DNA of 33,784 bases. Origin: Patescibacteria group bacterium (GTDB taxonomy: Bacteria; Patescibacteriota; Minisyncoccia; Phycocordibacterales; PALSA-1337). Below, piece by piece: positions 8,161 to 29,677 of this stretch (position 1 is the first letter of the stretch; the number at the start of each line of letters is the position of its first letter). The notes beneath the pieces are model-generated. The model saw nothing but the letters and a program-made list of their open reading frames with translations. It did not search any database and was not told the origin of the DNA. Both the position numbers and the translations under genes were made by a program. The DNA lies in assembly GCA_018970245.1 (NCBI GenBank), contig JAGWWT010000013.1, positions 1-33,784 on the forward strand, read 5' to 3'.

Positions 8161-8787
8161 CTATCTAGGCCACACTTGGACGTAGATCTCCCTCGCTCCT
8201 ATGATATCCCGGAAGGCCTTGGCATCTTTCTTTTTCTTATTCAGACTGCGATTGACTGCCCCGGCGACCATATCTGCCAGTTGCAAGAGGTTGTTTGACT
8301 TGGAATCCTGCATCTTCACTTTCTTTATGCAAACTTTGTCTTTGGTATTGATCTTCTTTTTCAGATACGTCGCAAGCTGGTATTTGAACAGCTTCCGGCC
8401 GGATTCATCTATGACCACGATGGGCTTCGAGAGCTTCTCTTTGGCATTCTCGAACAGCAGGTTGCTGGCGTACTTATAGAAAGATTCTTTGTATTTGAAG
8501 CCTTCGCTATAGAGGGCGGCCTTGTTGATGACTATGCCGTAATAGAAGAAATTGTATGGTAAGACCGCGCGGAAGAAAGCTTCCCTGACTCGATCAGAAT
8601 TCTCCTTGAAATGAAATTCGAATCCTTCCGGCAGATCGAGCTCCGTGCGCAGAAGGCCGATCCTTTTGTCGCACGCCAAAGCATCGTCGTTCTCCTCGAA
8701 CGCGATAAGGGCGATGGTGAAGAACTTGCTCGCTCCGTCGGCGAGCTTGAGCCCGGGATCCCCCGATTCATCGATGAATACCAGCAT
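8161..8787 (-). CDS. DUF3800 domain protein
   Basis: The 208-residue protein starts MLVFIDESGDPG, the N-terminal signature of DUF3800 (acidic residues D6, E7, D10). It carries the C-terminal LQLADMVAGA motif (about residues 168-177) found in the same family. DUF3800 proteins are predicted to have an RNase H-like fold and are frequent in defence regions; the biochemical role is not settled. It is the outermost member of the defence island. TATAAT ends 7 nt before the ATG. Confidence 0.88.
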   Translation of the reverse strand: MLVFIDESGDPGLKLADGASKFFTIALIAFEENDDALACDKRIGLLRTELDLPEGFEFHFKENSDRVREAFFRAVLPYNFFYYGIVINKAALYSEGFKYKESFYKYASNLLFENAKEKLSKPIVVIDESGRKLFKYQLATYLKKKINTKDKVCIKKVKMQDSKSNNLLQLADMVAGAVNRSLNKKKKDAKAFRDIIGAREIYVQVWPR

Positions 8788-9075: not shown

Positions 9076-9915
9076 CTATTTCCTTATATTCTCATCCAGA
9101 GTATTACCCTTTTCATCCTTCCAAGCTGTCCAGCCATTTATAGGCCTGCCTGACACAGTGGCCGCGGCGGCAGTCGGACTTTTGAACACGATATCTTTGG
9201 TAAATTTATATGAAATTCCATCAGCCTCTTTCACTAAAGTCCCATCTTTTATGAACTTTTCTCTAGCCGCTTTTGACCAACCAAAGAATGCTTCGGTCTC
9301 CCTCACTCTCGCCAAAGAACCGCTGAGTACGTTGATGCTACCATCAGTCAACAATTGAGCCCTAGCGTCAGCTCCGTCGGATTTCAAAAAATATATTTTT
9401 CGATCTGACAAAGAATCCGTAACGCTCTCAAATACCGGATATCCTAAGACAGAGAGAACATACCTGGCCTTATCGAAATAGTCCTTAGTGGTTATCTCAT
9501 CAAATTCAGACAGATGTGGTCTCCTGGGTACTGTGCGGTTCTCTAGATCGAAGCGTGCGATCTTGATAGCCTCTTCGTTGGCTACGGATTCCAAATATTT
9601 GACCTTGGCCTTATCGAGGCTGCCAATGAATCCTACTGCGGTATTCCAAAATATCTTTTTCTCATCATGATCATGGGTCAGCAATCGGCTTAATAGGTTC
9701 TCAGTCTCGCCTATATAGAGTTTTTGAGCCGAGCCTTCTTCGATATCACCGAATAAGAAATAGAGAGCTGGACTATTGGCACCTTCCCTATCCTTGAGAT
9801 CTTTGAGATTGGCCCTGGGCACAATGAACACTTTTGCCGGCCAATTGGCCATTTCTACAATCTTGAAGCCAGTATTTTCCGTAGGCAAAATTGTGTGCAG
9901 GACCTGATTTTTCAT
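9076..9915 (-). CDS. GIY-YIG nuclease-family protein with DUF4357 domain
   Basis: The N-terminal third holds a GIY-YIG-like fold: ALYFLFGD (about residue 50) for the GIY strand and KLYIGETENLLSRLLTHD (about 65-82) for the YIG strand and following helix. The C-terminal segment FKSPTAAAATVSGRPINGW matches DUF4357, which commonly follows GIY-YIG in restriction-linked proteins. It is downstream of hsdR on the same strand but has its own TGATCTAAT box 6 nt before ATG. Probably a DNA-acting accessory of the restriction locus. Confidence 0.88.
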   Translation of the reverse strand: MKNQVLHTILPTENTGFKIVEMANWPAKVFIVPRANLKDLKDREGANSPALYFLFGDIEEGSAQKLYIGETENLLSRLLTHDHDEKKIFWNTAVGFIGSLDKAKVKYLESVANEEAIKIARFDLENRTVPRRPHLSEFDEITTKDYFDKARYVLSVLGYPVFESVTDSLSDRKIYFLKSDGADARAQLLTDGSINVLSGSLARVRETEAFFGWSKAAREKFIKDGTLVKEADGISYKFTKDIVFKSPTAAAATVSGRPINGWTAWKDEKGNTLDENIRK

Positions 9916-9953: not shown

Positions 9954-12900
9954 TTACTGCATCTCTCCTGCCATCAACTCCGCCTGTTTCAACACTGTAT
10001 CTGTTGCTATTTCCTGCGCATCCGGCGGGTATCCGTACTGATTGAGCAATCGCCGGACCATCACACGCATACGAGCTCGGGCAGACTCGCGGACGTTCCA
10101 ATCGATCGTTGCGTTTTCTCGAACACGACCAACCAAGACACGCGCAAGGTCTCGAAGTTTATTATTACCAAGAATCTTAGTCGCGCTTTCGTTTTGGGCC
10201 AAAGCATCATAGAAGGCAATTTCATCTTCACTCAAACCAAGATCTTTACCTTCCTTATCGGCAGTCTGTATGTCTTTGGCCAAGTTAATCAACTCTTCAA
10301 TCACTTGAGCGGCCGTCAGCAAATTGTTTTGGTATCGCTTGATAGAGGCCTGAAGCATTTCCGAAAACTTCCGAGCTTGTACTGTGTTTTTCTTTCCGCG
10401 GCCGCGGATCTCGTCATTCAGAATCCTCTTGAGCAGTTCCAGGGCAATATTTTTACGCTCCATGCCACGGATTTCTTCAAGAAAATCTTCAGAGAGAATA
10501 GATATATCCGGCTTCTTGATACCTGACGCATCAAAGATATCAACGATGCCCTGCGACACAACCGCTTTACCTACCAACTGACGAATAGTTGATTCAACAT
10601 CGACATCACGACTGCCGCCATCGCTCGCCAACTTGATCAGACGCGCCTTTACCGCCTGGAAGAAGGCTACTTCCTCACGAATAGCTACAGCATCTTTCGA
10701 CGGCATAGCCAGAGCGAACAGTTTGGACAAGGTGATAACTTCTTTGATGAATCTATCTTTGCGATTATCTTTTTCTGAAGTATCAGCCAGGAGAAACTCC
10801 TCAATATCAAGGATCATCTTCAGTTTCGTCTCTGGACTACCAAGAAGCAATATATTCTTTGAAAGATCTAACCACTTGGGACCATTGAGAATACCGTATA
10901 TGGTCTCCAACTTAGCCAACATCTGCGGCACGACGTCCTTGGTCTGGTCCTCAATGACGGCCCCTTTGCCACCATTTTCCGTGTAATTGACCAGTGCTTC
11001 CTTGAGATCAGAGGCTATACCGATATAGTCGACGATCAAGCCACCAGGTTTATCATTGTAGACACGGTTGACGCGAGCTATGGCTTGCATGAGATTGGCT
11101 CCGCTCATAGGCTTATCGACATACATGGTGTGGAGACATGGCACATCGAAGCCGGTCAGCCACATGTCTCGAACAATGACCAGCTTCAGAGGATCTTTTA
11201 CATCCTTGAAACGTTGAGCTAGTTCTTTGCGCTGCTCCTTGTTGGTATGATGCGGCTGATATTCCTCAGGATCAGATGAAGCGGCAGTCATAACCACCTT
11301 GAGAGCTCCCTCTTTCCTATTGTCACTGTGCCACTCCGGTCGTAGTCTGACTATTTCCTCATAGAGCAAAACTGCAATACGACGACTCATAGCCACGATC
11401 ATGGCCTTGCCACTGAATACCTGCTGACGAGCATCGAAATGTTCAACAATATCCTTAGCAACATCTTTTACACGAGCTTGATGACCAACGACCGCCTCGA
11501 GCTGAGCCCACTTCGCCTTGGCTTTATCGCTTACGGTCGTCTCTTCACTTTCAAAAATTTCATCAACTGCGTAGTCGAGATGAGCCTTCTCTTCTTCTTT
11601 GAAGTGTAGCTTGGCGAGACGGGATTCATAGAATATTTTGACCGTGGCATGATCGTTTACTGCCGCTTGAATGTCGTATATATCCACGTATTCACCAAAG
11701 ACGGTGCGAGTATTTGCATCATCTTTCTCTATTGGCGTACCAGTAAAGCCGATAAATGACGCGTTAGGCAAAGCATCGCGTACGTATTTAGCAAAGCCGT
11801 AGCTCAAGATGGCACCCTTATCAGTTTCTCTAAGTTTTGCATCAAATCCATACTGTGTCCGATGAGCTTCATCAGCCATGACCACGATATTGGAACGCTC
11901 GGTCAAGGCCGAATATTCGGTCTCGCCATTTTCCAGAGAGAATTTTTGAATGGTGGTAAATACCACTCCTCCGCCCTTGGTGGCAAGGAGTTTTTTCAGA
12001 TCGGCCCGACTGTCTGCCTGTACCGGCTCTTGGCGCAGGAGGTCCTTAGCACAGGCAAAAGTATCAAATAGTTGTTGATCAAGATCATTACGATCGGTGA
12101 GCACTACAATGGTGGGGTTATTGAGTCGTTGGATGATCTTGCCGGCATAGAAAACCATCGATAGAGACTTGCCCGATCCTTGGGTATGCCAGACGACACC
12201 GGCGCGATGATCGGCGCTAGTAGCTCGCAGGGTGGAATCGATGGCTTTTTCAACAGCAAAGTATTGGTGATACGCTGCAACCTTCTTCATGGTACGAATA
12301 TCTATAGATCCGTCATCCAGGGTCTTCTTCTCAGTTTCAAAGACGGTGTAATTGCGAATAAGGTCAAGAAGTGTATACGGACGCAGCATGCCAAGGACCA
12401 GGGTTTCTATTTGCGGTTGGCTATGTCGTGCATCACGCTTACCATCTATAGATTTCCAGGCCATGAATCGGTCGAAGCCACTGGTAATGGTCCCCGCGCG
12501 AGCATCGAGACCATCAGAAATGACCAGAATACCGTTATATGCAAAGAGGTCGGGTACAGCCTGCTGATAATTGTGTATTTGGGTAAAAGCCTTCTGCACG
12601 GTAGCGTTTTCATTCGTAGCATCCTTGAGTTCTATCACTACCAGCGGCAAACCGTTTATGAAAATGACCACATCAGGTATCTTGTTGCGCTCCAGACCCT
12701 TGATAAAAAATTGATTGGTAACCAGAATATCATTTTTGGTCGTATGTTCCCAATCGATTACTCGTACCGTACGTCCGCGCATGTGGCCACCTTCCAGCAC
12801 CTCCACCGGCACACCTTCCGTGAGCAACCTGTGCATCGCACGATTATTCTCGATCACATTATCCGTCGCTTGAGCCACGCTCATGAGCTGGCTCACCGCA

Positions 12901-13088
12901 TAATTCCGCACTTCCTCAGATAGATCAGGATTGAGCTTTTTCACTGCCTCCACCAATCTCCCCCTCAGCACCACCTCCGCCAAATCCGGCCGCTCCGGCT
13001 CCAACCCCTCCGGGCTCGCATAGCTAAAACCCACCTTTTGCAAGAGCTCGATAGTCAGCTGTTCAATTGAGGATTCGTTGAGGGGCAT
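9954..13088 (-). CDS. hsdR: Type I restriction enzyme, R (translocase/nuclease) subunit
   Basis: The 1044-residue protein has an N-terminal nuclease core with D139 and E153-x-K155 (VVIELK). A SF2 motor follows: Walker A HTQGSGKS (301-308), DEAH (406-409) and GFTGTP (447-452). Length is normal for HsdR. It would cut unmodified DNA after ATP-driven translocation in complex with HsdM and HsdS. The start is 4 nt after the stop of the coiled-coil gene, so translation is probably coupled. Confidence 0.97.
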   Translation of the reverse strand: MPLNESSIEQLTIELLQKVGFSYASPEGLEPERPDLAEVVLRGRLVEAVKKLNPDLSEEVRNYAVSQLMSVAQATDNVIENNRAMHRLLTEGVPVEVLEGGHMRGRTVRVIDWEHTTKNDILVTNQFFIKGLERNKIPDVVIFINGLPLVVIELKDATNENATVQKAFTQIHNYQQAVPDLFAYNGILVISDGLDARAGTITSGFDRFMAWKSIDGKRDARHSQPQIETLVLGMLRPYTLLDLIRNYTVFETEKKTLDDGSIDIRTMKKVAAYHQYFAVEKAIDSTLRATSADHRAGVVWHTQGSGKSLSMVFYAGKIIQRLNNPTIVVLTDRNDLDQQLFDTFACAKDLLRQEPVQADSRADLKKLLATKGGGVVFTTIQKFSLENGETEYSALTERSNIVVMADEAHRTQYGFDAKLRETDKGAILSYGFAKYVRDALPNASFIGFTGTPIEKDDANTRTVFGEYVDIYDIQAAVNDHATVKIFYESRLAKLHFKEEEKAHLDYAVDEIFESEETTVSDKAKAKWAQLEAVVGHQARVKDVAKDIVEHFDARQQVFSGKAMIVAMSRRIAVLLYEEIVRLRPEWHSDNRKEGALKVVMTAASSDPEEYQPHHTNKEQRKELAQRFKDVKDPLKLVIVRDMWLTGFDVPCLHTMYVDKPMSGANLMQAIARVNRVYNDKPGGLIVDYIGIASDLKEALVNYTENGGKGAVIEDQTKDVVPQMLAKLETIYGILNGPKWLDLSKNILLLGSPETKLKMILDIEEFLLADTSEKDNRKDRFIKEVITLSKLFALAMPSKDAVAIREEVAFFQAVKARLIKLASDGGSRDVDVESTIRQLVGKAVVSQGIVDIFDASGIKKPDISILSEDFLEEIRGMERKNIALELLKRILNDEIRGRGKKNTVQARKFSEMLQASIKRYQNNLLTAAQVIEELINLAKDIQTADKEGKDLGLSEDEIAFYDALAQNESATKILGNNKLRDLARVLVGRVRENATIDWNVRESARARMRVMVRRLLNQYGYPPDAQEIATDTVLKQAELMAGEMQ

Positions 13089-13091
13089 GAA

Positions 13092-14387
13092 TTATTTTAA
13101 TTTTGAGATGAGATCAGCAATATCCTTGGCGCCAAGCCCATCTGGAAAGAGGCTCTTAAGCTCCTTTATCTTCAACACAACCTTTCCCCATTTCTTTCTA
13201 TCCTTTTCCTCTTTCCTATCGTCTTTCAAAACCTCTGATGAATCATGTACCTCTGAATATAAGTCACCAATAACCTTTCTGAAGAACTCAGCGTTATCTG
13301 GACCAGCTTGATCCTTAATCTCAACAAGGAATTTCGAGTGGTTTCTTATAACAGCAGCCAGAACTGCTTTAAAGGCGTATTTCTCATTTAAGATACGCTC
13401 ATTACCATACTGTTTTATAGCTACTCCAATTATAAAGATGAGGGGAGAAGTAAGTAGGAATCTAAAGATAACTATGTTTACCTCCGGTACTTTAGTGAGA
13501 TCAGTAAAGTAGCCCGCAAAGAGGCTATAAAGCATATAAGCTAGAACTGCAATCGATACCAAGAGAATTACTAACCAAGTAATTGAACTCCAACGAAGCA
13601 TCCTTTCTCTTTTCTGAAATGCATATTCAAATCCGGTATCAGTAATAAGAGCCGTGATCTTTTTAACCTCATCCTTATCGAGTTTTGCTTCCTCGAGTAT
13701 CTTTTCTATCTCAAGACCAACTTGGTCTATCTCAGATTTATTCTTATTAATTTCATCGAGGAGTTCCTTTGACTGATCACGAAATGTTTTAATTTCAGCC
13801 AAAACCGTACCAGTCTGCTTCTGTAGGATTATTGAGTTATCAAGAATAGCTTGGAGGCCCGTATTTTTATCTGTGATTTTTGCGTTAATTGCAACAAATT
13901 GCTGATACGCTTCTTGTACCTGAGTAAGTTTTGTCTGAACATCAGAGAGAAGTTTATCAATATCGCCAAGCCTCTTTTGTGCAGAATCCTTAATCTTTTC
14001 AATGTCTCCCTTCAGAGCTGTGACTGTTGAGACAAGCGCTTCAACTTCGCCGCCCCTACCCTCTATTTTCCCCTTTGTATTTTCAATTTTTTGAAGAGCA
14101 TCCGCAATTTTATCCAGATCCAATTGAATTTTCTCAAGATTGCTTTTTATATCAGAGAGGTACTTTGCTGATTCATTCTTTATGTTTTCAATACTTGAAA
14201 AGCGCTCTCTGGCATCATCAGAGATTTTACTGACGTCAGTCTTTCTGTCTTCAAGAGCCTTAAACGCTTCATCATATCTAACCCTAATGGCACTAATCTT
14301 TTCAAGAAGATCTTTAGCTTTATTGTATTGCGTCTTGAGCTCACGCAGTTCATCTGGATTTATATTTTCGGTTTTATCGTCAGACAT
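13092..14387 (-). CDS. Membrane-anchored long coiled-coil protein inside the restriction operon
   Basis: The 431 residues are about 260 of heptad-like charged coiled coil (Leu/Ile/Lys/Glu rich, few Pro or Gly). Two transmembrane helices follow at about 268-293 (WLVILLVSIAVLAYMLY) and 306-325 (FRFLLTSPLIFIIGVAI), then a C-terminal cytosolic tail of about 105 residues. No nuclease or ATPase motif is visible and no family is recognised. It lies 4 nt from both neighbours, between hsdS and hsdR, so it is co-expressed with the restriction enzyme. Tethering or sensing at the membrane is only an inference. Confidence 0.88.
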   Translation of the reverse strand: MSDDKTENINPDELRELKTQYNKAKDLLEKISAIRVRYDEAFKALEDRKTDVSKISDDARERFSSIENIKNESAKYLSDIKSNLEKIQLDLDKIADALQKIENTKGKIEGRGGEVEALVSTVTALKGDIEKIKDSAQKRLGDIDKLLSDVQTKLTQVQEAYQQFVAINAKITDKNTGLQAILDNSIILQKQTGTVLAEIKTFRDQSKELLDEINKNKSEIDQVGLEIEKILEEAKLDKDEVKKITALITDTGFEYAFQKRERMLRWSSITWLVILLVSIAVLAYMLYSLFAGYFTDLTKVPEVNIVIFRFLLTSPLIFIIGVAIKQYGNERILNEKYAFKAVLAAVIRNHSKFLVEIKDQAGPDNAEFFRKVIGDLYSEVHDSSEVLKDDRKEEKDRKKWGKVVLKIKELKSLFPDGLGAKDIADLISKLK

Positions 14388-14391
14388 TGCA

Positions 14392-15549
14392 TTAGTGAGA
14401 AAAAATGTTGTTTAACAGCTCATCTCTCAATCTCGACAAATTGGAAATATCCTTATTGTTGCTCCAAATCCTATAGACCATCGGCTGTACAACACTACTA
14501 TATTTTTTAGCAATTTCAACTAGCGGAATAATATACTCTTTGATTTCAAAATCTGGCCAATGACCTTTGTATTCTATGAATTCAATCTGACCCTTTGTCA
14601 TGAAATAGATAAAGAATTCGTCATATCCATTCTTGCCCTTGAATGGGATGACATTCTGAATCGCACAAAACGGATAATTTATGAGCCATAGGTTACATGT
14701 ATGATTCGTAAAAACAATCACTGGGGCTTCGGCCGTAGCAATCATGTCTGGATCTCGCTTTGTGTATCCATAAATACTAGTGGTCCCCTGATCTATGATC
14801 GGCGTCTTTCCATCTGAGTCCAAATCATCTTTATCACATCGATAAGTAATTGTTAGACGTTCAATGACGTCCATGACAGTTCCAACCCTCCACCCCTCGG
14901 GAATCTTGCCCAATTCGGAATCGACCATGACGCCGGTGGCGCCGGGGAAACGGAAATCGACGAACCATTCCTTGAAGATGGTCTCCGCCATGCGCTCGAG
15001 CGTGGTATTTTCAGCGCGCAAGAGCTCGATCTTGTCGTCAAGGGAGCCCAGGAGCGCGGCGATGGAGCGTTGGTCGTCTTTTGATTCTGGGATTGAAACA
15101 ATCAAATTTTTCAGGTCAGATACCGTAACATGTCCAAGACCCGTAGTCTGTCGTTGTTTTGCTCTATGTACAAAAACTGATTTTTGAGATTTGAGCAGAT
15201 AAAAGAAAAACTTTTTGTCGACGAGATTAGCGTCTGGCAAAACTTTGAAAATATGTTGATTGAGCCAACCTTCAGGCAAATCAAACCAGTAAATATCGAT
15301 CGATGTCTCAGGGCTGCCAGACCAAGAAAAAAGCATGTCTCCTTTATTCAAAAAATACTTTTTATCAAATGAATCTTTTGTAAAAGCTGTCTGACTGCCG
15401 ATCCCATTTTTCAATTCGTTAATTTTTATTACCGGTACCCCCTTTCTGTCATCAGAAAAGTTAATGTCTCTGAAAGCAAGCCCATTGATCCAATCTGCAA
15501 GAGAGTATACAGGGTAAGGTTGCCATTTTTTTGATGAGAGGAGGTTCAT
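14392..15549 (-). CDS. hsdS: Type I restriction enzyme, S (specificity) subunit
   Basis: The 385-residue protein has two target-recognition halves separated by the conserved helical region IAALLGSLDDKIELLRAEN...ETIFKEWFVDF (about residues 160-200), characteristic of HsdS. The central part has a higher GC content than its flanks (around 14880-15070). That fits recombination of variable recognition domains around a conserved spacer. The start codon overlaps the rloB stop by 4 nt. Confidence 0.95.
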   Translation of the reverse strand: MNLLSSKKWQPYPVYSLADWINGLAFRDINFSDDRKGVPVIKINELKNGIGSQTAFTKDSFDKKYFLNKGDMLFSWSGSPETSIDIYWFDLPEGWLNQHIFKVLPDANLVDKKFFFYLLKSQKSVFVHRAKQRQTTGLGHVTVSDLKNLIVSIPESKDDQRSIAALLGSLDDKIELLRAENTTLERMAETIFKEWFVDFRFPGATGVMVDSELGKIPEGWRVGTVMDVIERLTITYRCDKDDLDSDGKTPIIDQGTTSIYGYTKRDPDMIATAEAPVIVFTNHTCNLWLINYPFCAIQNVIPFKGKNGYDEFFIYFMTKGQIEFIEYKGHWPDFEIKEYIIPLVEIAKKYSSVVQPMVYRIWSNNKDISNLSRLRDELLNNIFSH

Positions 15550-16160
15550 TGCTTTGTCTCCGACTTAAATGACCTCAATCTTTCGACAAGCTTGTGCACG
15601 TGGGTAGATGGATCTCTTTTTGAGTGAGAGGTCGTACCGGCTTTATCGTGCTGTTCGTGTAATCTCTTTGCATTTCGAATGGCAGAGGCTTCCTTGTCCT
15701 TGATCAATTCATAAATATCAGAAGTGCTCTTATCATACTTCCTCCCGAGGAGTTTGGACAATTTCGGTTCAAATTTATCCCTGCCGATTGAGGTGTTCAG
15801 GAATTCAAAATGCAAAATAAACCACAACTCAAAACATTCATTTGAGTATGCTGGCTGAACGCCATTCGCAAGCGCTAATTCGATAGATTTGTTGAAGTCA
15901 TCATGATCATCACGATCGAAGACTACCCACCACTCTGTCTCCAAGTCTTTGTCTGTTTCAGCGTTCTTCCTGTCGATTACCCACTCAACCAAAGACAGGG
16001 TGTGGTCACCTCGACCGTCAACCTTGATCTCAATCGTGGTCAGTTTCAGTTCATCCTTGATGGAATTGAAATAGTTTGGCTCCGTCTTTTTCCCTTCAGT
16101 ATAAATGCGAATAACCCTTTTGGGTTTGCGCGTATTCTCTTTTCGAGCAAACCGTGACAT
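15546..16160 (-). CDS. rloB: RloB-family TOPRIM-like protein (AbiLii-like)
   Basis: The 204-residue protein has YTEGKKTEPNYF (20-31) with the acidic first motif, DRDDHDDF (82-89) as the DxD motif, and NECFELWFILHF (107-118). This set defines RloB, a TOPRIM-like family first named as a restriction-linked ORF. The paired upstream gene encodes an RloA ATPase. AbiL of lactococci uses the same two families, so an abortive phage-response role is likely but inferred. It overlaps hsdS by 4 nt. Confidence 0.9.
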   Translation of the reverse strand: MSRFARKENTRKPKRVIRIYTEGKKTEPNYFNSIKDELKLTTIEIKVDGRGDHTLSLVEWVIDRKNAETDKDLETEWWVVFDRDDHDDFNKSIELALANGVQPAYSNECFELWFILHFEFLNTSIGRDKFEPKLSKLLGRKYDKSTSDIYELIKDKEASAIRNAKRLHEQHDKAGTTSHSKRDPSTHVHKLVERLRSFKSETKQ

Positions 16161-16164
16161 CGCT

Positions 16165-17421
16165 TTACTTTTTTACAGAACCAATGAAAGGAAGCGCCCC
16201 AAATCGACCCTCGAGGTATTTCTTGGCGTACTCTGTGTCATTTCTCATGTCGAACTCGGCCAATGAGAAAAGTTTGGCGGCTCCGTGCTCGTCTTTCTCC
16301 GTAAACCAGAACTGATCCTTGATAAACTCGTCGCGGTAACCCAAAAGGCTCGTATCGTGCGTGGTCACGATCAGTTGGGCGTTATGTTTGTTTGTTTCCT
16401 CCGACTCGAACAGATCAACAATATGCTTAGTTAGAAGCGGGTGTAGGCTATTGTCGAATTCATCAATGAGAAGGACTTTCCCTTTTTCTAGAGTATCGAT
16501 GATCGGGCCGAGAATTGATACAAACTTCTGGGTGCCCATTGACTCCTGGTCTAGGGGAAGTTTGAAGGTGTCTGTGGTCTTAGTGTTTTTGTCATATATA
16601 GGATGATCCAGTGACAATATGCTCGTTTTTTCCATCTTCTTAATCGCAGAGAACTTTTCGGGCACATCCATGATATCTATCGTGGGCATATCAATCTCTT
16701 CTGTATGACCCCCTGAAATGCAAAAATCTGCCGCATTAAGATGTTTAAGAAAGTTTTCCTTAAAGCCCGCATGGTTCTTGAACTCTTTGATAGTGAATTG
16801 CTGATAGTTGATATAATTTAGGCTTGAGATAGCATTCATATTCCGGAGTGCATTCATGATCGCCATAGCGAAAGGGTCGTTAAGTTGTGCTGCCACCGAC
16901 AGAAACAAGGCCTCCTTTCTAGTCTTGCTACCCAACATCTCCGCGTCTTTGAAACAGTTTGCGTCTAATTTGATATCCTGCTCCTTTCGATCTATGAGAT
17001 TCTTCTCGGAACCAGTAGAGGAGGAGATCTTAACCATTCGCTCTGTCACAATATGATCTTTAACAAAAGAAAAACTATAACGATATGCTCCCTCGTTTGA
17101 CTCGGTAGCAGAAAATGCCAATTCGAATATAGTTGGATTGTTTTTGCTATCGACAGAAGCCAAAAACGGAGTATGCGGCAATTCGACTTTCTCTTGTATA
17201 TTGGCTGACGTCAAAATAGCCATCCTCATTAGACTAAAACCATCGAGAATAGTCGTCTTTCCAGATGCGTTTGGTCCATAGACAAACGAGGTTTTGAGCA
17301 AATTTTCACCACTACTTTCAAATGTATGACCATCGTTCTTTCTGGCTACCATAGAGAAAGTGGCCTTATCCTTAAAGGCCTTAAAATTTTGAACCGAGAA
17401 CTCTATGAGTGAGATTTTCAT
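16165..17421 (-). CDS. rloA: RloA-family AAA ATPase (AbiLi-like)
   Basis: The 418-residue protein starts with the SMC/ABC-like NFKAFKD motif, Walker A GPNASGKT (49-56), a signature-like QESMGTQKF (about 292-300), Walker B LLIDEFD (317-323) and the H-loop TTHDTSLL (353-360). These match AAA_15/AAA_21 ATPases of the RloA/OLD-like defence group. It ends 4 nt before rloB. Two good promoters precede it, so rloA-rloB-hsdS-X-hsdR can be transcribed without hsdM. Confidence 0.92.
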   Translation of the reverse strand: MKISLIEFSVQNFKAFKDKATFSMVARKNDGHTFESSGENLLKTSFVYGPNASGKTTILDGFSLMRMAILTSANIQEKVELPHTPFLASVDSKNNPTIFELAFSATESNEGAYRYSFSFVKDHIVTERMVKISSSTGSEKNLIDRKEQDIKLDANCFKDAEMLGSKTRKEALFLSVAAQLNDPFAMAIMNALRNMNAISSLNYINYQQFTIKEFKNHAGFKENFLKHLNAADFCISGGHTEEIDMPTIDIMDVPEKFSAIKKMEKTSILSLDHPIYDKNTKTTDTFKLPLDQESMGTQKFVSILGPIIDTLEKGKVLLIDEFDNSLHPLLTKHIVDLFESEETNKHNAQLIVTTHDTSLLGYRDEFIKDQFWFTEKDEHGAAKLFSLAEFDMRNDTEYAKKYLEGRFGALPFIGSVKK

Positions 17422-17600: not shown

Positions 17601-19160
17601 TTACAGGCTTATTCCCACCTTCCCCAACTGCTTCTTAATTTCCTCATTTAGCCTCACTTCCTCTGCCATTTGCCCCTTCAATTCAGCGGTAAGCTTGGCA
17701 ATTTTCTCCTCAAACGGGATACCGTCATCGACAGCATCTTTTATGCCAACATAAAGACCGGGTGTAAGTTTGTAATCGCGTTTTTTTATATCCTCAAGAG
17801 AAGCCGACTTACTAAAACCTTTTTTGTCTTCATATTTACTACCTTTCGATCGCCACTGATGATAAGTACCAGCAATCATAGATATATCTTCATCGGAAAA
17901 TGCTCGGTGAGTACGATCAGTCATGTGGCCGACTTCTGAGGCATCGATGAAGAGAATCTCACCTGTACGCTTGCGATCACCATTACCAGCACGCTTGCGC
18001 GAGATGAACCAGATACAAGCCGGAATACCCGTATTGTAGAAAAGTTGCTTCGGCAACATAACAATACAATCAACCAGATCGGCATCAACAAGTCGCTGAC
18101 GAATTTCTCCTTCACCACTGGATTGCGACGACAGTGAGCCATTAGCCAAGACACAGGCCATGATGCCATGCGGAGCCAAGTGATAGACCATATGCTGTAT
18201 CCAGGCGAAATTGGCATTACCAGCAGGCGGCTTGCCATACTGCCAGCGGGGATCGTTTTGCAGAAGTTCCCCGCTCCAATCAGAATCATTGAATGGCGGA
18301 TTAGCTAGAATATAATCAGCCTTGAGATCACGATATTCATCCCTGAGGAATGAGCCGTCATTATTCCACTTGATGCCTGAACCATCAATTCCACGAATAG
18401 CCAGGTTCATTCGTGCCAAACGATAGGTCGTCTGATTGCTCTCCTGACCATAGACGGCTAGATCATCGATACGGCCTCGGTGTGACTCCACAAATTTTTC
18501 AGACATAATGAACATACCACCTGAACCACAACACGGATCGTACACGCGACCTTTGAGCGGCTCTGTCATCTCAACCATCAACTTCACGATCGACTTTGGT
18601 GTATAGAATTGGCCACCCTTCTTGCCTTCGGCATTGGCAAATTCGCCGAGGAAATATTCGTAGACACGACCAAGGATATCTTTCGACTTAGCCTCCTCGT
18701 CACCGAGAGCAATATTTCCTATAAGGTCAATCAGCCCACCAAGTGAATTCTTGTCGAGATTGGGCCGAGCAAACACCTTTGGAAGAATGCCCTTGAGAGA
18801 CGGGTTAAGCTTCTCAATTGCTTCCATAGCATTGTCGAGATCTTCGCCAATAGTCGGCAGCTTGGCCCGTCCGTGCAAATATGACCAGCGGGCTTCTTCA
18901 GGGACATAGAAGACATTCACCTGACGATATTCATCAATATCTTCCGGATTAGCACCCGTCCCCTCTGCTTTTTCTTTTACAAGTTTGGTATGCAGCTCTT
19001 CAAAAGAATCAGAAATGTATTTCAAGAAGACTAGGCCGAGCACGACATTCTTGTATTCGGCGGCATCTATATTCTTGCGCAGTTTATCGGCTGCCTTGAA
19101 GAGAGCCTTCTCAAAGCCTTCCGCTTTGTCTTTGGTTTTAGCACCAGCAGATTTTGGCAT
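17601..19160 (-). CDS. hsdM: Type I restriction enzyme, M (N6-adenine methyltransferase) subunit
   Basis: The 519-residue protein has the HsdM N-terminal helical domain (EYKNVVLGLVFLKYISD). The methyltransferase SAM site is DPCCGSGG (208-215) and the catalytic NPPF motif is at 287-290. GGQFYTPKSIVKLMVE precedes the SAM site as usual. Together with HsdS it would methylate adenines at the target site. It is first in the island and separated from rloA by a 179-nt AT-rich promoter region. Confidence 0.97.
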   Translation of the reverse strand: MPKSAGAKTKDKAEGFEKALFKAADKLRKNIDAAEYKNVVLGLVFLKYISDSFEELHTKLVKEKAEGTGANPEDIDEYRQVNVFYVPEEARWSYLHGRAKLPTIGEDLDNAMEAIEKLNPSLKGILPKVFARPNLDKNSLGGLIDLIGNIALGDEEAKSKDILGRVYEYFLGEFANAEGKKGGQFYTPKSIVKLMVEMTEPLKGRVYDPCCGSGGMFIMSEKFVESHRGRIDDLAVYGQESNQTTYRLARMNLAIRGIDGSGIKWNNDGSFLRDEYRDLKADYILANPPFNDSDWSGELLQNDPRWQYGKPPAGNANFAWIQHMVYHLAPHGIMACVLANGSLSSQSSGEGEIRQRLVDADLVDCIVMLPKQLFYNTGIPACIWFISRKRAGNGDRKRTGEILFIDASEVGHMTDRTHRAFSDEDISMIAGTYHQWRSKGSKYEDKKGFSKSASLEDIKKRDYKLTPGLYVGIKDAVDDGIPFEEKIAKLTAELKGQMAEEVRLNEEIKKQLGKVGISL

Positions 19161-26995: not shown

Positions 26996-28363
26996 CTATT
27001 TGCCAAGCCTCCTCAATAATACCTGGATCGTCCTGAAAACGATCTTCAGGTCCAGTCCGAATGAGCGGTTCTTTATGTAGAAGAGGTCGTATGACAGCTT
27101 GTTGGCCGTCTCTTCGGTATCGATGGCATGATGAGGGTGCGCCTGATGGTAGATGAGCGCCCAGCCGATGACGCCAGGCTTGACCAGATGGCGCGCGCTG
27201 TAATATGGGATCTCCTTCTCATAGACCGACACGAGAGCCGGCAGCTCCGGGCGCGGGCCGACCATGGAAAGGTCGCCCTTGAGGACGTTCCAGAATTGCG
27301 GGAACTCGTCTATGCGGGATTTGCGGAGGAATGCGCCGACTTTGGTGACTTTATTCTTGGTGACGCCTTCCGATCCGTACTTCCCTTCATCGTTGCCTGA
27401 CATGGTGCGGAATTTGGTGATGCGGATCTGCCTGCCATTCTTGCCAGTGCGCGTCTGTGTGATGAAAAGCGGCCCGCCATCTTCCATCTTTATGGCCGCC
27501 CAGACGAATGGATAGAAGACCAGCGAGACGATCCCGCCGAAGACGGCGATCGCTATGTCGATCAGGCGCTTGAGCCCGTCGTAGACGACGCGGCTCGCCA
27601 GAACGGCATTGGACTGCTCTATCAGCCAGCGCTCCGAAACGATCGAGAGAGGCACGCGGTCGAAGATGGATTCATAGAGGCGCTCGGCGTCGATGACTTG
27701 CACGCCGCTGAAGACCAGAGGATATAGGGACGGCATGGCCGATTCGACGTCCTCGTCGTACATGTCGGCTGCCACGGCTTGGGCGCGGGAATCGGCGACA
27801 GACGAAGAGACGGCTTTGGCCAGGTCGGCCGGCCTGCCGCTATAGGCATGAGGATCGATAGTCTCCACGAAGATGAGGCCATATCGGCTCGAGCCATTCA
27901 CTTCCAGGCGAAGATCCTCGATCTCTGGCCCCGAACCGACCAGGATGGCCGGCTGGCGCCTGGCGTGCGAGACCACGGGATACATGATCGTCCGCCAGAA
28001 ATAGAGCATGGCGGTCGCCACTATGAAATATATGACCAAGTTGGCCTTCGGAGCGATCGACACCGGCGCGAAATAGAAGAAGACCACGCCGATGACGATG
28101 TCGATGATCTGGATCGTCAAGAAGAGGTTGCGCGAGCCGTTGCGGACCAGGGCGGCGCGCTTGTCGTACAGGCCGGCCGAGAAGTTGACGAGGATGAAGA
28201 TGACTATGAGGATCGAGAACGACCTCATATGCTCGCCCAGGAGCGACCGCCCGGGGATCTCGCCGTAACGGATAGCAAGGGTCAGAATGAGCGAGAAAAC
28301 GTAAGCCAGCGCGTCGCCGACGATCAGGGTGGCCGTGGAACGGGAATTGGAAAAGCCGGACAT
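26996..28363 (-). CDS. Undecaprenyl-phosphate sugar-1-phosphate transferase (WbaP/polyprenyl glycosylphosphotransferase type)
   Basis: The 455-residue protein has four N-terminal membrane helices (about 10-130), a nucleotide-fold middle (AILVGSGPEIEDLRL) and the C-terminal bacterial sugar transferase domain: KRLIDIAIAVFGG, then KFRTM, RKSRIDEFPQFWNVLKGD and SMVGPRPELP. It would start a lipid-linked surface glycan. Start at ATG 28363 is set by TGGTAATAT 7 nt upstream. A longer reading to 28984 runs antisense through the neighbouring glycosyltransferase and is rejected. Confidence 0.94.
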   Translation of the reverse strand: MSGFSNSRSTATLIVGDALAYVFSLILTLAIRYGEIPGRSLLGEHMRSFSILIVIFILVNFSAGLYDKRAALVRNGSRNLFLTIQIIDIVIGVVFFYFAPVSIAPKANLVIYFIVATAMLYFWRTIMYPVVSHARRQPAILVGSGPEIEDLRLEVNGSSRYGLIFVETIDPHAYSGRPADLAKAVSSSVADSRAQAVAADMYDEDVESAMPSLYPLVFSGVQVIDAERLYESIFDRVPLSIVSERWLIEQSNAVLASRVVYDGLKRLIDIAIAVFGGIVSLVFYPFVWAAIKMEDGGPLFITQTRTGKNGRQIRITKFRTMSGNDEGKYGSEGVTKNKVTKVGAFLRKSRIDEFPQFWNVLKGDLSMVGPRPELPALVSVYEKEIPYYSARHLVKPGVIGWALIYHQAHPHHAIDTEETANKLSYDLFYIKNRSFGLDLKIVFRTIQVLLRRLGK

Positions 28364-28370
28364 GGTCGAG

Positions 28371-28379
28371 ATATTACCA
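28371..28379 (-). promoter_or_regulatory. Extended -10 of the sugar transferase gene
   Basis: TGGTAATAT, 7-nt gap to ATG; leaderless. Confidence 0.6.
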
Positions 28380-28435
28380 TGGTTTTTGGCCTGTTTCAAG
28401 GCCAAAACGCGCCGCATCCATGCCAGCAGCCGCTC

Positions 28436-28464
28436 TTGGCGCGGCATAATACTCGTGCTAGCTT
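28436..28464 (+). promoter_or_regulatory. Promoter of the GT4 gene
   Basis: TTGGCG (28436-28441), 17-nt spacer, TAGCTT (28459-28464) preceded by TGC; 7 nt to ATG 28472. Confidence 0.5.
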
Positions 28465-28471
28465 TAGACGG

Positions 28472-29677
28472 ATGAAGATCATGTATGTCATAACCAAGTC
28501 GAACTGGGGCGGCGCCCAGCGGCACGTCTTCGACCTGGCCACGGCCATGAAGGAGAAGGGCCACGAAGTCTGGGTGGCCCTCGGCGGCGAAGGCCTCCTC
28601 AAGCAGAAGCTCGAAGCGGCAGGCATCTATACTTTCTCGATCTCCAGCATGCAGCGGGACATATCGGTCGGAAAGGATGCGGGGTCGCTCAAGGAGATAT
28701 GGCATGTCATCCGGAACAAGCGGCCGGACGTCCTCCATCTGCACAGCACGAAAGCAGCCGGGCTCGGTTCCGTGGCCGGCCGGATGCTTCGGGTGCCATT
28801 CGTGGTCCAAACGGTCCATGGATGGGCATTCAACGAGGACAGGCCGCTGGGCCAGAAGCTCCTCATCAGGTTCTTCTCCTGGCTGACCATGCTCTTCACT
28901 CACTCCACCATCCTGCTCTCCGAGCGGGAATTCGAGCAGGCTGCGCGCTTTCCGGGCGTGAAGAGCAAGCTCAAGCTCATCCATCCTGGCATGAAGGCGC
29001 AGACGCTATATTCGGTCGACGGCGCCAAGCAGGCGCTGGCGAAGAAGATCGGCATGGAACCGGCCGAATTCGGCAAGAAGACCGTCGTCGGCACGATCGC
29101 CGAGCTTCACCCGAACAAGGGCATCGGCTATCTCGTGGAAGCGGCGGCCATCGTCAAGGCCCAGCATCCGGGGATGATCTGCATCGTCATAGGCGATGGC
29201 GAGGAGAGCGCTTCCCTTCAGGCAATGTCGAAGGAGAAGCAGCTCGATAGCGCCTTTTTCCTGGCGGGATACATGGATAATGCCGCCGAGTACCTCAAAG
29301 CCTTCAACGTCTTCGTCCTGCCTTCAGTCAAGGAGGGGGCGCCATATGCGCTCCTAGAAGCGGGATCGGCTTCCCTGCCGGTCGTGGCCACGACAGTGGG
29401 CGGCGTCCCGGAGATCATCGAGGACATGAAGTCGGGCATCCTAGTACAGCCCAAGAATCCGCGCGAGCTCTCGCACGCTATCTCGTTCATGATCGAGCAC
29501 CCTGACGAGCGGAGGAAGTATGGAGCGGCTCTCAAGGAACGGGTCTCTACGAAATTCGGGTTCGATCGGATGATCTGGCTGGTGGAGGGGCTATATTCGA
29601 CCCGCGCGTCGAGGATGAAGGGGGCGGTCGTCGAAGATGGAAGGAGGGAACCGGGATCATTGACGGCGCAGAAATAG
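28472..29677 (+). CDS. Glycosyltransferase family 4
   Basis: The 401-residue protein has the GT-B N-terminal domain (MYVITKSNWGGAQRHVFDLA, then LHLHSTKAAGLGS), and the C-terminal donor-binding domain. That domain has GTIAELHPNKGIGYLVEA and the KEGAPYALLEAGS motif with paired Glu, then VGGVPEII. It probably extends the glycan begun by the divergent sugar transferase. Start at ATG 28472, where the promoter and the first conserved residues agree. Confidence 0.95.
   Translation: MKIMYVITKSNWGGAQRHVFDLATAMKEKGHEVWVALGGEGLLKQKLEAAGIYTFSISSMQRDISVGKDAGSLKEIWHVIRNKRPDVLHLHSTKAAGLGSVAGRMLRVPFVVQTVHGWAFNEDRPLGQKLLIRFFSWLTMLFTHSTILLSEREFEQAARFPGVKSKLKLIHPGMKAQTLYSVDGAKQALAKKIGMEPAEFGKKTVVGTIAELHPNKGIGYLVEAAAIVKAQHPGMICIVIGDGEESASLQAMSKEKQLDSAFFLAGYMDNAAEYLKAFNVFVLPSVKEGAPYALLEAGSASLPVVATTVGGVPEIIEDMKSGILVQPKNPRELSHAISFMIEHPDERRKYGAALKERVSTKFGFDRMIWLVEGLYSTRASRMKGAVVEDGRREPGSLTAQK

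What the first reader, a model, noticed from the sequence alone, without database searches (positions are those of the whole stretch)
13092..14387. Membrane-anchored coiled-coil protein between hsdS and hsdR
About 260 residues of coiled coil followed by two transmembrane helices and a tail, translated in register with restriction subunits. No standard type I system needs such a protein. It could hold the complex at the membrane where phage or incoming DNA arrives, or be a membrane-disrupting effector for RloAB.
Basis: inference. Interest (0 to 1): 0.7.

Follow-up and report, generated by a model that had tools for sequence, protein, structure and literature searches.

The report
Membrane coiled-coil partner of restriction systems
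A bacterium's DNA-cutting defence operon carries an extra gene for a membrane-anchored coiled-coil protein, and relatives of that protein turn up inside several unrelated DNA-modifying defence systems and alone in prophages, which suggests a little-noticed membrane arm of bacterial immunity.

Summary
Window 13092-14387 (-) is an intact 431-codon gene, 4 nt after hsdS and 3 nt before hsdR. It encodes a strongly heptad-periodic rod (residues ~12-248), two TM helices (~266-291, ~302-325) and a cytosolic tail. No Pfam, NCBIfam or PADLOC model claims it.

It belongs to a broad, unnamed family defined by the TM hairpin flanked by F-x-x-R and E-x-Y-x-F-K. In 23 Patescibacteria genomes with the family, 15 copies sit beside restriction or modification genes: type I, type III, type II, Eco57I-like, EcoRI-methylase plus GmrSD/HNH, and a helicase-nuclease. 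Two intact copies fill the hsdS|x|hsdR slot and one lies between mod and res. In Acinetobacter BREX it lies between pglX and pglZ (3 of 3 intact loci read). Within 5 kb of a DNA methylase: 11 of 20 tested, 0.86 expected. A distant branch stands alone in prophages, including the P2 defence hotspot.

Best reading: an autonomous anti-phage membrane module, repeatedly embedded in modification-based defences as a second line, probably a latent membrane effector. Tethering and entry-blocking remain open. An RloAB effector is unlikely, because only the window has RloAB. Mechanism is inferred, not shown.

The parts
13092..14387 (-). coiled-coil + two-TM protein gene (431 aa), the subject of the finding
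13644..14354 (-). heptad-periodic rod, residues 12-248, predicted cytosolic
   Evidence: 0 of 2000 shuffles as high; topology
13608..13619 (-). F-x-x-R motif before TM1 (residues 257-260)
   Evidence: F257 invariant in 34-row alignment A8; R260 nearly invariant in 11-row A2
13515..13592 (-). TM helix 1, residues ~266-291
13413..13484 (-). TM helix 2, residues ~302-325
13368..13385 (-). E-x-Y-x-F-K motif after TM2 (residues 335-340)
   Evidence: E335, Y337, K340 invariant in A8
13095..13367 (-). C-terminal helical tail, predicted cytosolic
14392..15549 (-). hsdS
   Evidence: PF01420
9954..13088 (-). hsdR
   Evidence: PF04313, PF18766, PF11867
17601..19160 (-). hsdM
   Evidence: PF02384, PF12161; the only PF02384 place in the window's genome
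16165..17421 (-). RloA-like AAA_21 ATPase (PADLOC AbiLi), a separate embedded module
15546..16160 (-). RloB (PADLOC AbiLii)
   Evidence: PF13707
9076..9915 (-). GIY-YIG-like + DUF4357 protein (PADLOC PDC-S14) downstream of hsdR; link to the finding unproven

Best explanation
The protein is an accessory anti-phage module, not a subunit that restriction needs. A coiled-coil rod and a tail lie in the cytosol, tied to the inner membrane by a two-helix hairpin; the conserved F-x-x-R and E-x-Y-x-F-K motifs sit where the hairpin leaves the membrane on the cytosolic side. Most likely it is silent until infection is sensed in the cytosol, by the rod or through the neighbouring modification complex. The hairpins then rearrange and damage the membrane, stopping the infected cell. 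Placed between the modification/specificity gene and the restriction gene it serves as a second line when restriction fails or is blocked, as PrrC does for EcoprrI. SHOWN: gene, architecture, family, repeated embedding, standalone prophage copies. INFERRED: topology (positive-inside rule), defence role (location). PROPOSED: trigger and membrane damage.
For: Tight operon in the window. Same slot in a distant relative: L008 hsdM-x-hsdS-CCTM-hsdR, 24% identity. mod|CCTM|res in L026 (profile match 89.7%, E 1.9e-6). pglX|CCTM|pglZ in 3 of 3 intact Acinetobacter loci read. 15 of 23 Patescibacteria genomes beside restriction/modification genes; 11 of 20 tested within 5 kb of PF02384/PF01555, 0.86 expected, P about 4e-11. 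Association changed several times: 8 label changes on the tree, at least 4 forced by starred branches. Prophage branch is homologous (hhalign 97.7%, E 1.9e-12) and in E. coli HS sits between replication endonuclease and portal, a site where 4 of the 21 systems of one screen lay. K/R before/between/after the TMs: 79/35/96, three of 26 rows without motif uninformative. Precedents for embedded effectors in hsd operons: darTG2 between hsdS and hsdR, prrC in EcoprrI.
Against: No toxicity, membrane damage or phage protection has been measured. No fold or profile match links the hairpin to a known pore former. Most prophage copies have no restriction neighbour (48 of 51), so a guard role for the restriction complex cannot be general. 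Nearness to RM genes is expected of any defence gene in a defence island, so the 5-kb statistic alone does not show a functional link. The family also sits in type III loci, and type III enzymes are reported not to respond to Ocr, so one common Ocr-like trigger is unlikely. 8 of 23 Patescibacteria copies lack a restriction neighbour that I recognised.
Confidence: 0.4

Rival explanations
1. Membrane tether: the cytosolic rod binds the modification/specificity complex (HsdM-HsdS, PglX, Mod) and holds it at the inner membrane, so that entering phage DNA is scanned and cut at the point of injection.
For: In the window, L008, L010/L012/L016, L026, L112 and L117 the gene lies directly after the specificity or modification gene, gaps from -29 to +15 nt (L016 by annotation). 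SNIPE shows that membrane placement can serve DNA cutting at injection (PMC13190303 passages). N-in/C-in topology puts the rod in the cytosol.
Against: Standalone prophage and plasmid copies without restriction partners. The partners are unrelated families with no shared docking surface known. The Acinetobacter NEB394 BREX of seven genes is active without it (PMC9122589 passages).
Confidence: 0.22
2. Entry blocker: it works alone at the inner membrane against genome injection, like prophage superinfection-exclusion proteins, the coiled coil perhaps engaging injected phage proteins such as tape-measure proteins.
For: Standalone members in many prophages (50 viral loci) and in P2-like prophages at or near defence hotspots.
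Against: Weak resemblances to tape-measure proteins are what any coiled coil gives. It does not explain repeated embedding in modification operons.
Confidence: 0.2
3. Effector or membrane partner of the RloA-RloB (AbiL-like) pair in the same operon.
For: RloA and RloB lie in the same operon.
Against: No RloA/RloB hit was listed in any other family locus annotated, and hsdS separates it from rloB.
Confidence: 0.04
4. Hitchhiker with a general membrane or structural role, carried in defence islands and prophages without antiviral action.
For: No function measured; 8 of 23 Patescibacteria copies lack restriction neighbours.
Against: Overlapping or near-overlapping operon positions between RM subunits and repeated independent association.
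Confidence: 0.12

Closest known systems
PrrC in the EcoprrI type IC locus
   Same: Accessory gene embedded in an hsd operon; proposed logic of a second line when restriction is inhibited (PMC3874165 and PMC12707154 passages).
   Different: PrrC is a tRNA anticodon nuclease; this protein has no Pfam domain above cut-off, and instead a membrane hairpin and coiled coil.
DarTG2 between hsdS and hsdR in EPEC
   Same: Same slot, between hsdS and hsdR (PMC12255303 passages).
   Different: DarTG2 is a two-gene toxin-antitoxin pair; this is one membrane protein.
SNIPE (PD-lambda-1; DUF4041 + GIY-YIG)
   Same: Elongated membrane-anchored defence protein facing the cytosol (PMC13190303 passages).
   Different: SNIPE has one N-terminal TM and a nuclease domain; here two C-terminal TMs and no nuclease domain. 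A GIY-YIG gene lies 4 nt upstream of two relatives, which is only a lead.
PHROGs phrog_34659 and phrog_30912 (unknown function)
   Same: Prophage and plasmid relatives match them: L013 to phrog_34659 at 6e-87, L011 to phrog_30912 at 5e-59.
   Different: The window protein itself matches only weakly (phrog_30912 E 0.31).
SLATT / DUF4231 two-TM effectors
   Same: Two-TM architecture linked to bacterial conflict systems (SLATT background recalled).
   Different: No SLATT or DUF4231 match at E up to 10; hhalign with one DUF4231 protein 0.1%.

Membership tests
Type I RM core subunit (HsdM/HsdS/HsdR) | N6_Mtase, Methylase_S or HSDR/SWI2_SNF2 domain in the protein | tested here: not met
   No such hit for the protein; the neighbours carry them.
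PrrC/RloC anticodon nucleases | NTPase plus anticodon nuclease domain (recalled definition) | tested here: not met
   No NTPase or nuclease Pfam above cut-off; weak SMC/Rad50 matches only in the coiled coil.
PrrC-like guard logic (works like, not member) | Activated when the neighbouring restriction enzyme is inhibited | not testable with these tools
   Only the position is shown.
SNIPE | DUF4041 and GIY-YIG domains with an N-terminal TM | tested here: not met
   No DUF4041 or GIY-YIG hit listed for the protein; TMs at 266-325 of 431.
SLATT / DUF4231 | Match to a SLATT or DUF4231 profile | tested here: not met
   None at E up to 10 for 9 members; hhalign 0.1% with one DUF4231 protein.
SLATT / DUF4231 | Shared fold | tested here: inconclusive
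   Foldseek viral list has SLATT proteins only at E 3.5 and 4.1; model confidence modest.
This unnamed coiled-coil/2TM family | TM hairpin flanked by F-x-x-R and E-x-Y-x-F-K | tested here: met
   34-row alignment A8: F257, E335, Y337, K340 invariant. All 36 rows given were recovered by an iterated profile at 1e-22 or better (that profile was rebuilt from these rows, so the E-values are not independent). Some divergent members (e.g. L026) keep only a changed form of the second motif.
PADLOC-DB 2.0.0 defence models | A specific, non-coiled-coil match | tested here: not met
   Best matches LmuB 1e-5 and JetC 6e-5, within the coiled coil; nine relatives likewise.

The most novel reading that the evidence does not exclude
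One membrane module has been recruited many times, independently, into almost every kind of modification-based defence: type I, II and III restriction, EcoRI-methylase/GmrSD-HNH pairs and BREX, often directly behind the gene that reads or marks DNA. It also works alone in prophages. If so, DNA-modification immunity has a general membrane-acting second line, built on a new two-TM effector class, beside the nuclease back-ups catalogued so far.
Probability: 0.45. Interest if true: 0.82.

Novelty: new variant of a known kind. Interest (0 to 1): 0.62.

Why it matters
Accessory genes embedded in RM and BREX operons are known, but the described ones that I read of are nucleases, tRNA cutters or DNA modifiers. 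The 2026 BREX survey catalogues nuclease back-ups; in its main text 'transmembrane' does not occur and 'membrane' occurs only in a reference (PMC12839542, passages). A membrane module shared by type I, II, III and BREX systems, and carried alone by prophages, would join systems usually treated apart and give a testable handle on what happens when restriction fails. It occurs in E. coli HS and on Acinetobacter plasmids, so laboratory tests are within reach.

Tried and rejected
Close-relative scans: genome contigs gave 1 relative; viral contigs with the window protein gave none; plasmids and phages by tblastn with the window protein gave none. The wider family appeared only through the divergent relatives L005 and L006.

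NCBIfam and PADLOC hits to SMC, Rad50, LmuB, JetC and others were rejected as coiled-coil noise: they lie in the rod, differ between relatives and, for NCBIfam, are far below curated cut-offs. Pfam hits are all below their cut-offs; most lie in the rod, a few (Yip1, ASC) in the TM region, and none recurs among relatives. PDB sequence hits with A9 are coiled coils.

SLATT/DUF4231 was considered and not supported. Foldseek gave no match at E 0.001 or better for either model. VIA-align listed hairpin look-alikes (8j2f Z 10.1 rmsd 2.2 over 97; 6b87, titled transmembrane protein TMHC2_E, Z 9.8 rmsd 2.3 over 100); for long helices such Z values may mean only a common arrangement, so no kinship is claimed.

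RloAB effector rejected as a general role. An Ocr-type single trigger was weighed and not adopted because type III loci also carry the gene.

Rows dropped before counts: G273, G1302 and G1306 (weak or divergent hits) were not searched for methylases, so 11 of 20 becomes 11 of 23 if they count as misses; the 15 of 23 includes them as misses. G056 was left out of the tree because its gene has an early stop. In the topology count L109, L116 and L117 lacked the motif pattern and gave no usable TM values. In one search, L037-L039 were left out because they match the Acinetobacter type.

Literature searches that found nothing on this family. Payne et al. 2024 (embedded defences) was seen only as a cited reference, not read; it may include this family.

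Full report
OBSERVATION. The gene is real and intact: 13092-14387 on the minus strand, 431 aa, ATG start. The operon reads hsdM (17601-19160), RloA-like ATPase (16165-17421), RloB (15546-16160), hsdS (14392-15549), this gene (called CCTM below), hsdR (9954-13088), then a GIY-YIG-like + DUF4357 protein (9076-9915). Gaps around the gene are 4 and 3 nt. The rod is far more heptad-periodic than chance (0.988 against 0.231 +/- 0.062; 0 of 2000 shuffles). Two TM segments follow. The AlphaFold model (34 rows, pLDDT 69.6, pTM 0.37) is all-helical, with a long helix 176-248, a break near 249, and a hairpin 250-293 / 302-361. A model of a prophage relative (40 rows, pLDDT 77.2, pTM 0.36) repeats this layout: 175-257, break, 260-307 / 313-368, preceded by a helical N-terminal region.

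TOPOLOGY. Across 26 members, lysine and arginine counts before TM1, between the TMs and after TM2 were 79, 35 and 96; three rows lacking the motif gave no usable values. By the positive-inside rule both rod and tail are cytosolic. This is inference.

FAMILY. The window protein alone finds few relatives: 1 in genome contigs; 5 of 197 related genomes including itself. Two of these, L005 and L006 (24-26% identity), opened a wider family by tblastn: 31 and 27 plasmid records. Invariant positions in a 34-row alignment are F257, E335, Y337 and K340. Profile comparison of the RM-linked group with the prophage group gives 97.7% probability, E 1.9e-12. All 36 rows given to an iterated profile were recovered (the profile was rebuilt from those rows, so its E-values are not independent). 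No Pfam, NCBIfam or PADLOC model fits beyond coiled-coil noise. PHROGs phrog_34659 and phrog_30912, of unknown function, cover the prophage and plasmid branch.

CONTEXT IN PATESCIBACTERIA. Profile searches hit 6 of 379, 6 of 383, 2 of 294 and 10 of 288 genomes, with overlaps; this makes 23 distinct genomes. Reading the loci with Pfam on the partners, 15 of 23 lie beside restriction or modification genes. Type I: window, G041 (hsdM-x-hsdS-CCTM-hsdR), G1275 (CCTM-hsdS-x-x-hsdM, with an hsdR-like gene upstream), G1314 (hsdS fragments). N6 methylase + specificity gene: G1225. Type III: G343 (mod|CCTM|res) and G955 (same order, frames broken). Type II: G290 (CCTM, then methylase and MvaI/BcnI-type nuclease). 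Eco57I-like methylase: G1245. EcoRI methylase + GmrSD_N/HNH protein: G857 and G1249, and G093 about 3.5 kb away. GIY-YIG gene 4 nt upstream with methylase genes nearby: G681 and G056. Helicase-nuclease: G1393. The other eight (G003, G536, G784, G854, G1243, G273, G1302, G1306) have none that I recognised.

CHANCE. PF02384 and PF01555 places were searched in 20 of the 23 genomes. Eleven of the 20 gene copies lie within 5 kb of such a methylase; 0.86 are expected from coverage; P about 4e-11. With 2 kb it is 7 of 20 against 0.44. This shows company, not partnership: defence genes cluster. The stronger evidence is position inside operons: gaps of -29 to +22 nt to the upstream partner gene in 10 of the 11 rows that have one, the eleventh 59 nt (13 rows measured; two of the ten are BREX copies of one type), and repeated association on the tree: 8 label changes, at least 4 forced by starred branches (36 rows, several long branches, so placement of L026, L110, L107, L024 and L116 is unsure).

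BREX. In three Acinetobacter plasmid loci read (L010, L012, L016) the gene is annotated between pglX and pglZ, overlapping each by 4 nt in the two measured. A fourth (L124) is a wreck with fragments, an IS256 element and brxL. The studied NEB394 BREX has seven genes and works without it (PMC9122589, passages), so it is an accessory.

STANDALONE COPIES. 50 viral contigs carry the prophage branch. Of 51 viral loci annotated, 3 had a restriction-like neighbour in my small reference set. In E. coli, 56 of 5,426 genomes have a DNA match, 12 of them over at least 80% of the gene. In E. coli HS the gene lies between the P2-type replication endonuclease and the portal gene, as it does in a prophage on a Klebsiella plasmid. 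That interval is a known defence hotspot: in one screen 7 of 21 systems were in P2-like prophages and 4 at this site (PMC9519451 passage); see also PMC9122126 passages.

MECHANISM. The standalone copies imply that sensing and action can reside in this one protein or use common host or phage partners. The embedded copies imply value next to modification systems. Accessory effectors in hsd operons have precedent: DarTG2 between hsdS and hsdR (PMC12255303 passages) and PrrC embedded in EcoprrI (PMC3874165 passage); review passages describe such guardians (PMC12707154). I therefore favour a latent membrane effector as second line (0.4), over tethering (0.22) and entry blocking (0.2). SNIPE (PMC13190303 passages) keeps the tether and entry readings alive. 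Overall I put the chance that it is an anti-phage protein at about 0.85.

LITERATURE. No paper found or 124 describes this family in what I saw; only listings and passages were read, and one relevant preprint (Payne et al. 2024, seen as a reference) was not read. DefensePredictor (PMC13092281, passages) tested E. coli systems with TM and coiled-coil parts; I could not tell whether a member of this family is among them.

Noticed in passing
window 15546-17421: RloA-RloB pair (PADLOC AbiLi/AbiLii, 5e-87 and 2e-29) embedded between hsdM and hsdS: a second embedded module in the same operon.
   Followed up: partly
window 9076-9915 and 8161-8787: Downstream of hsdR: a GIY-YIG-like + DUF4357 protein matching PADLOC PDC-S14 (1e-74), then a DUF3800 protein.
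   Followed up: no
L007:1838-2278, L106:3244-3693: A small GIY-YIG protein ends 4 nt before the family gene in both loci; possibly a two-gene unit.
   Followed up: partly
L002:3208-5432, L108:10543-12713, L115:4841-6946: An EcoRI-type methylase and a GmrSD_N + HNH protein form a recurring pair near the family gene, perhaps an unusual restriction system of its own (Pfam on the L002 pair only).
   Followed up: partly
L110:4945-11083: A type III mod|x|res locus with broken frames, the family gene included: a decaying copy that keeps the gene order.
   Followed up: no
G1243, G1249, G1275, G1302, G1306: Family frames contain in-frame TGA codons, in keeping with TGA-reassigned lineages of this phylum (code 25 was used to read them).
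   Followed up: partly
L124:5342-12624: Acinetobacter seifertii plasmid BREX remnant: fragments of the family gene, an IS256 element and brxL.
   Followed up: no
window 26996-28984: 662-aa protein whose last 190 residues match WbaP/PglC-type phosphoglycosyl transferases (1e-25): a surface-sugar gene near the defence operon.
   Followed up: no
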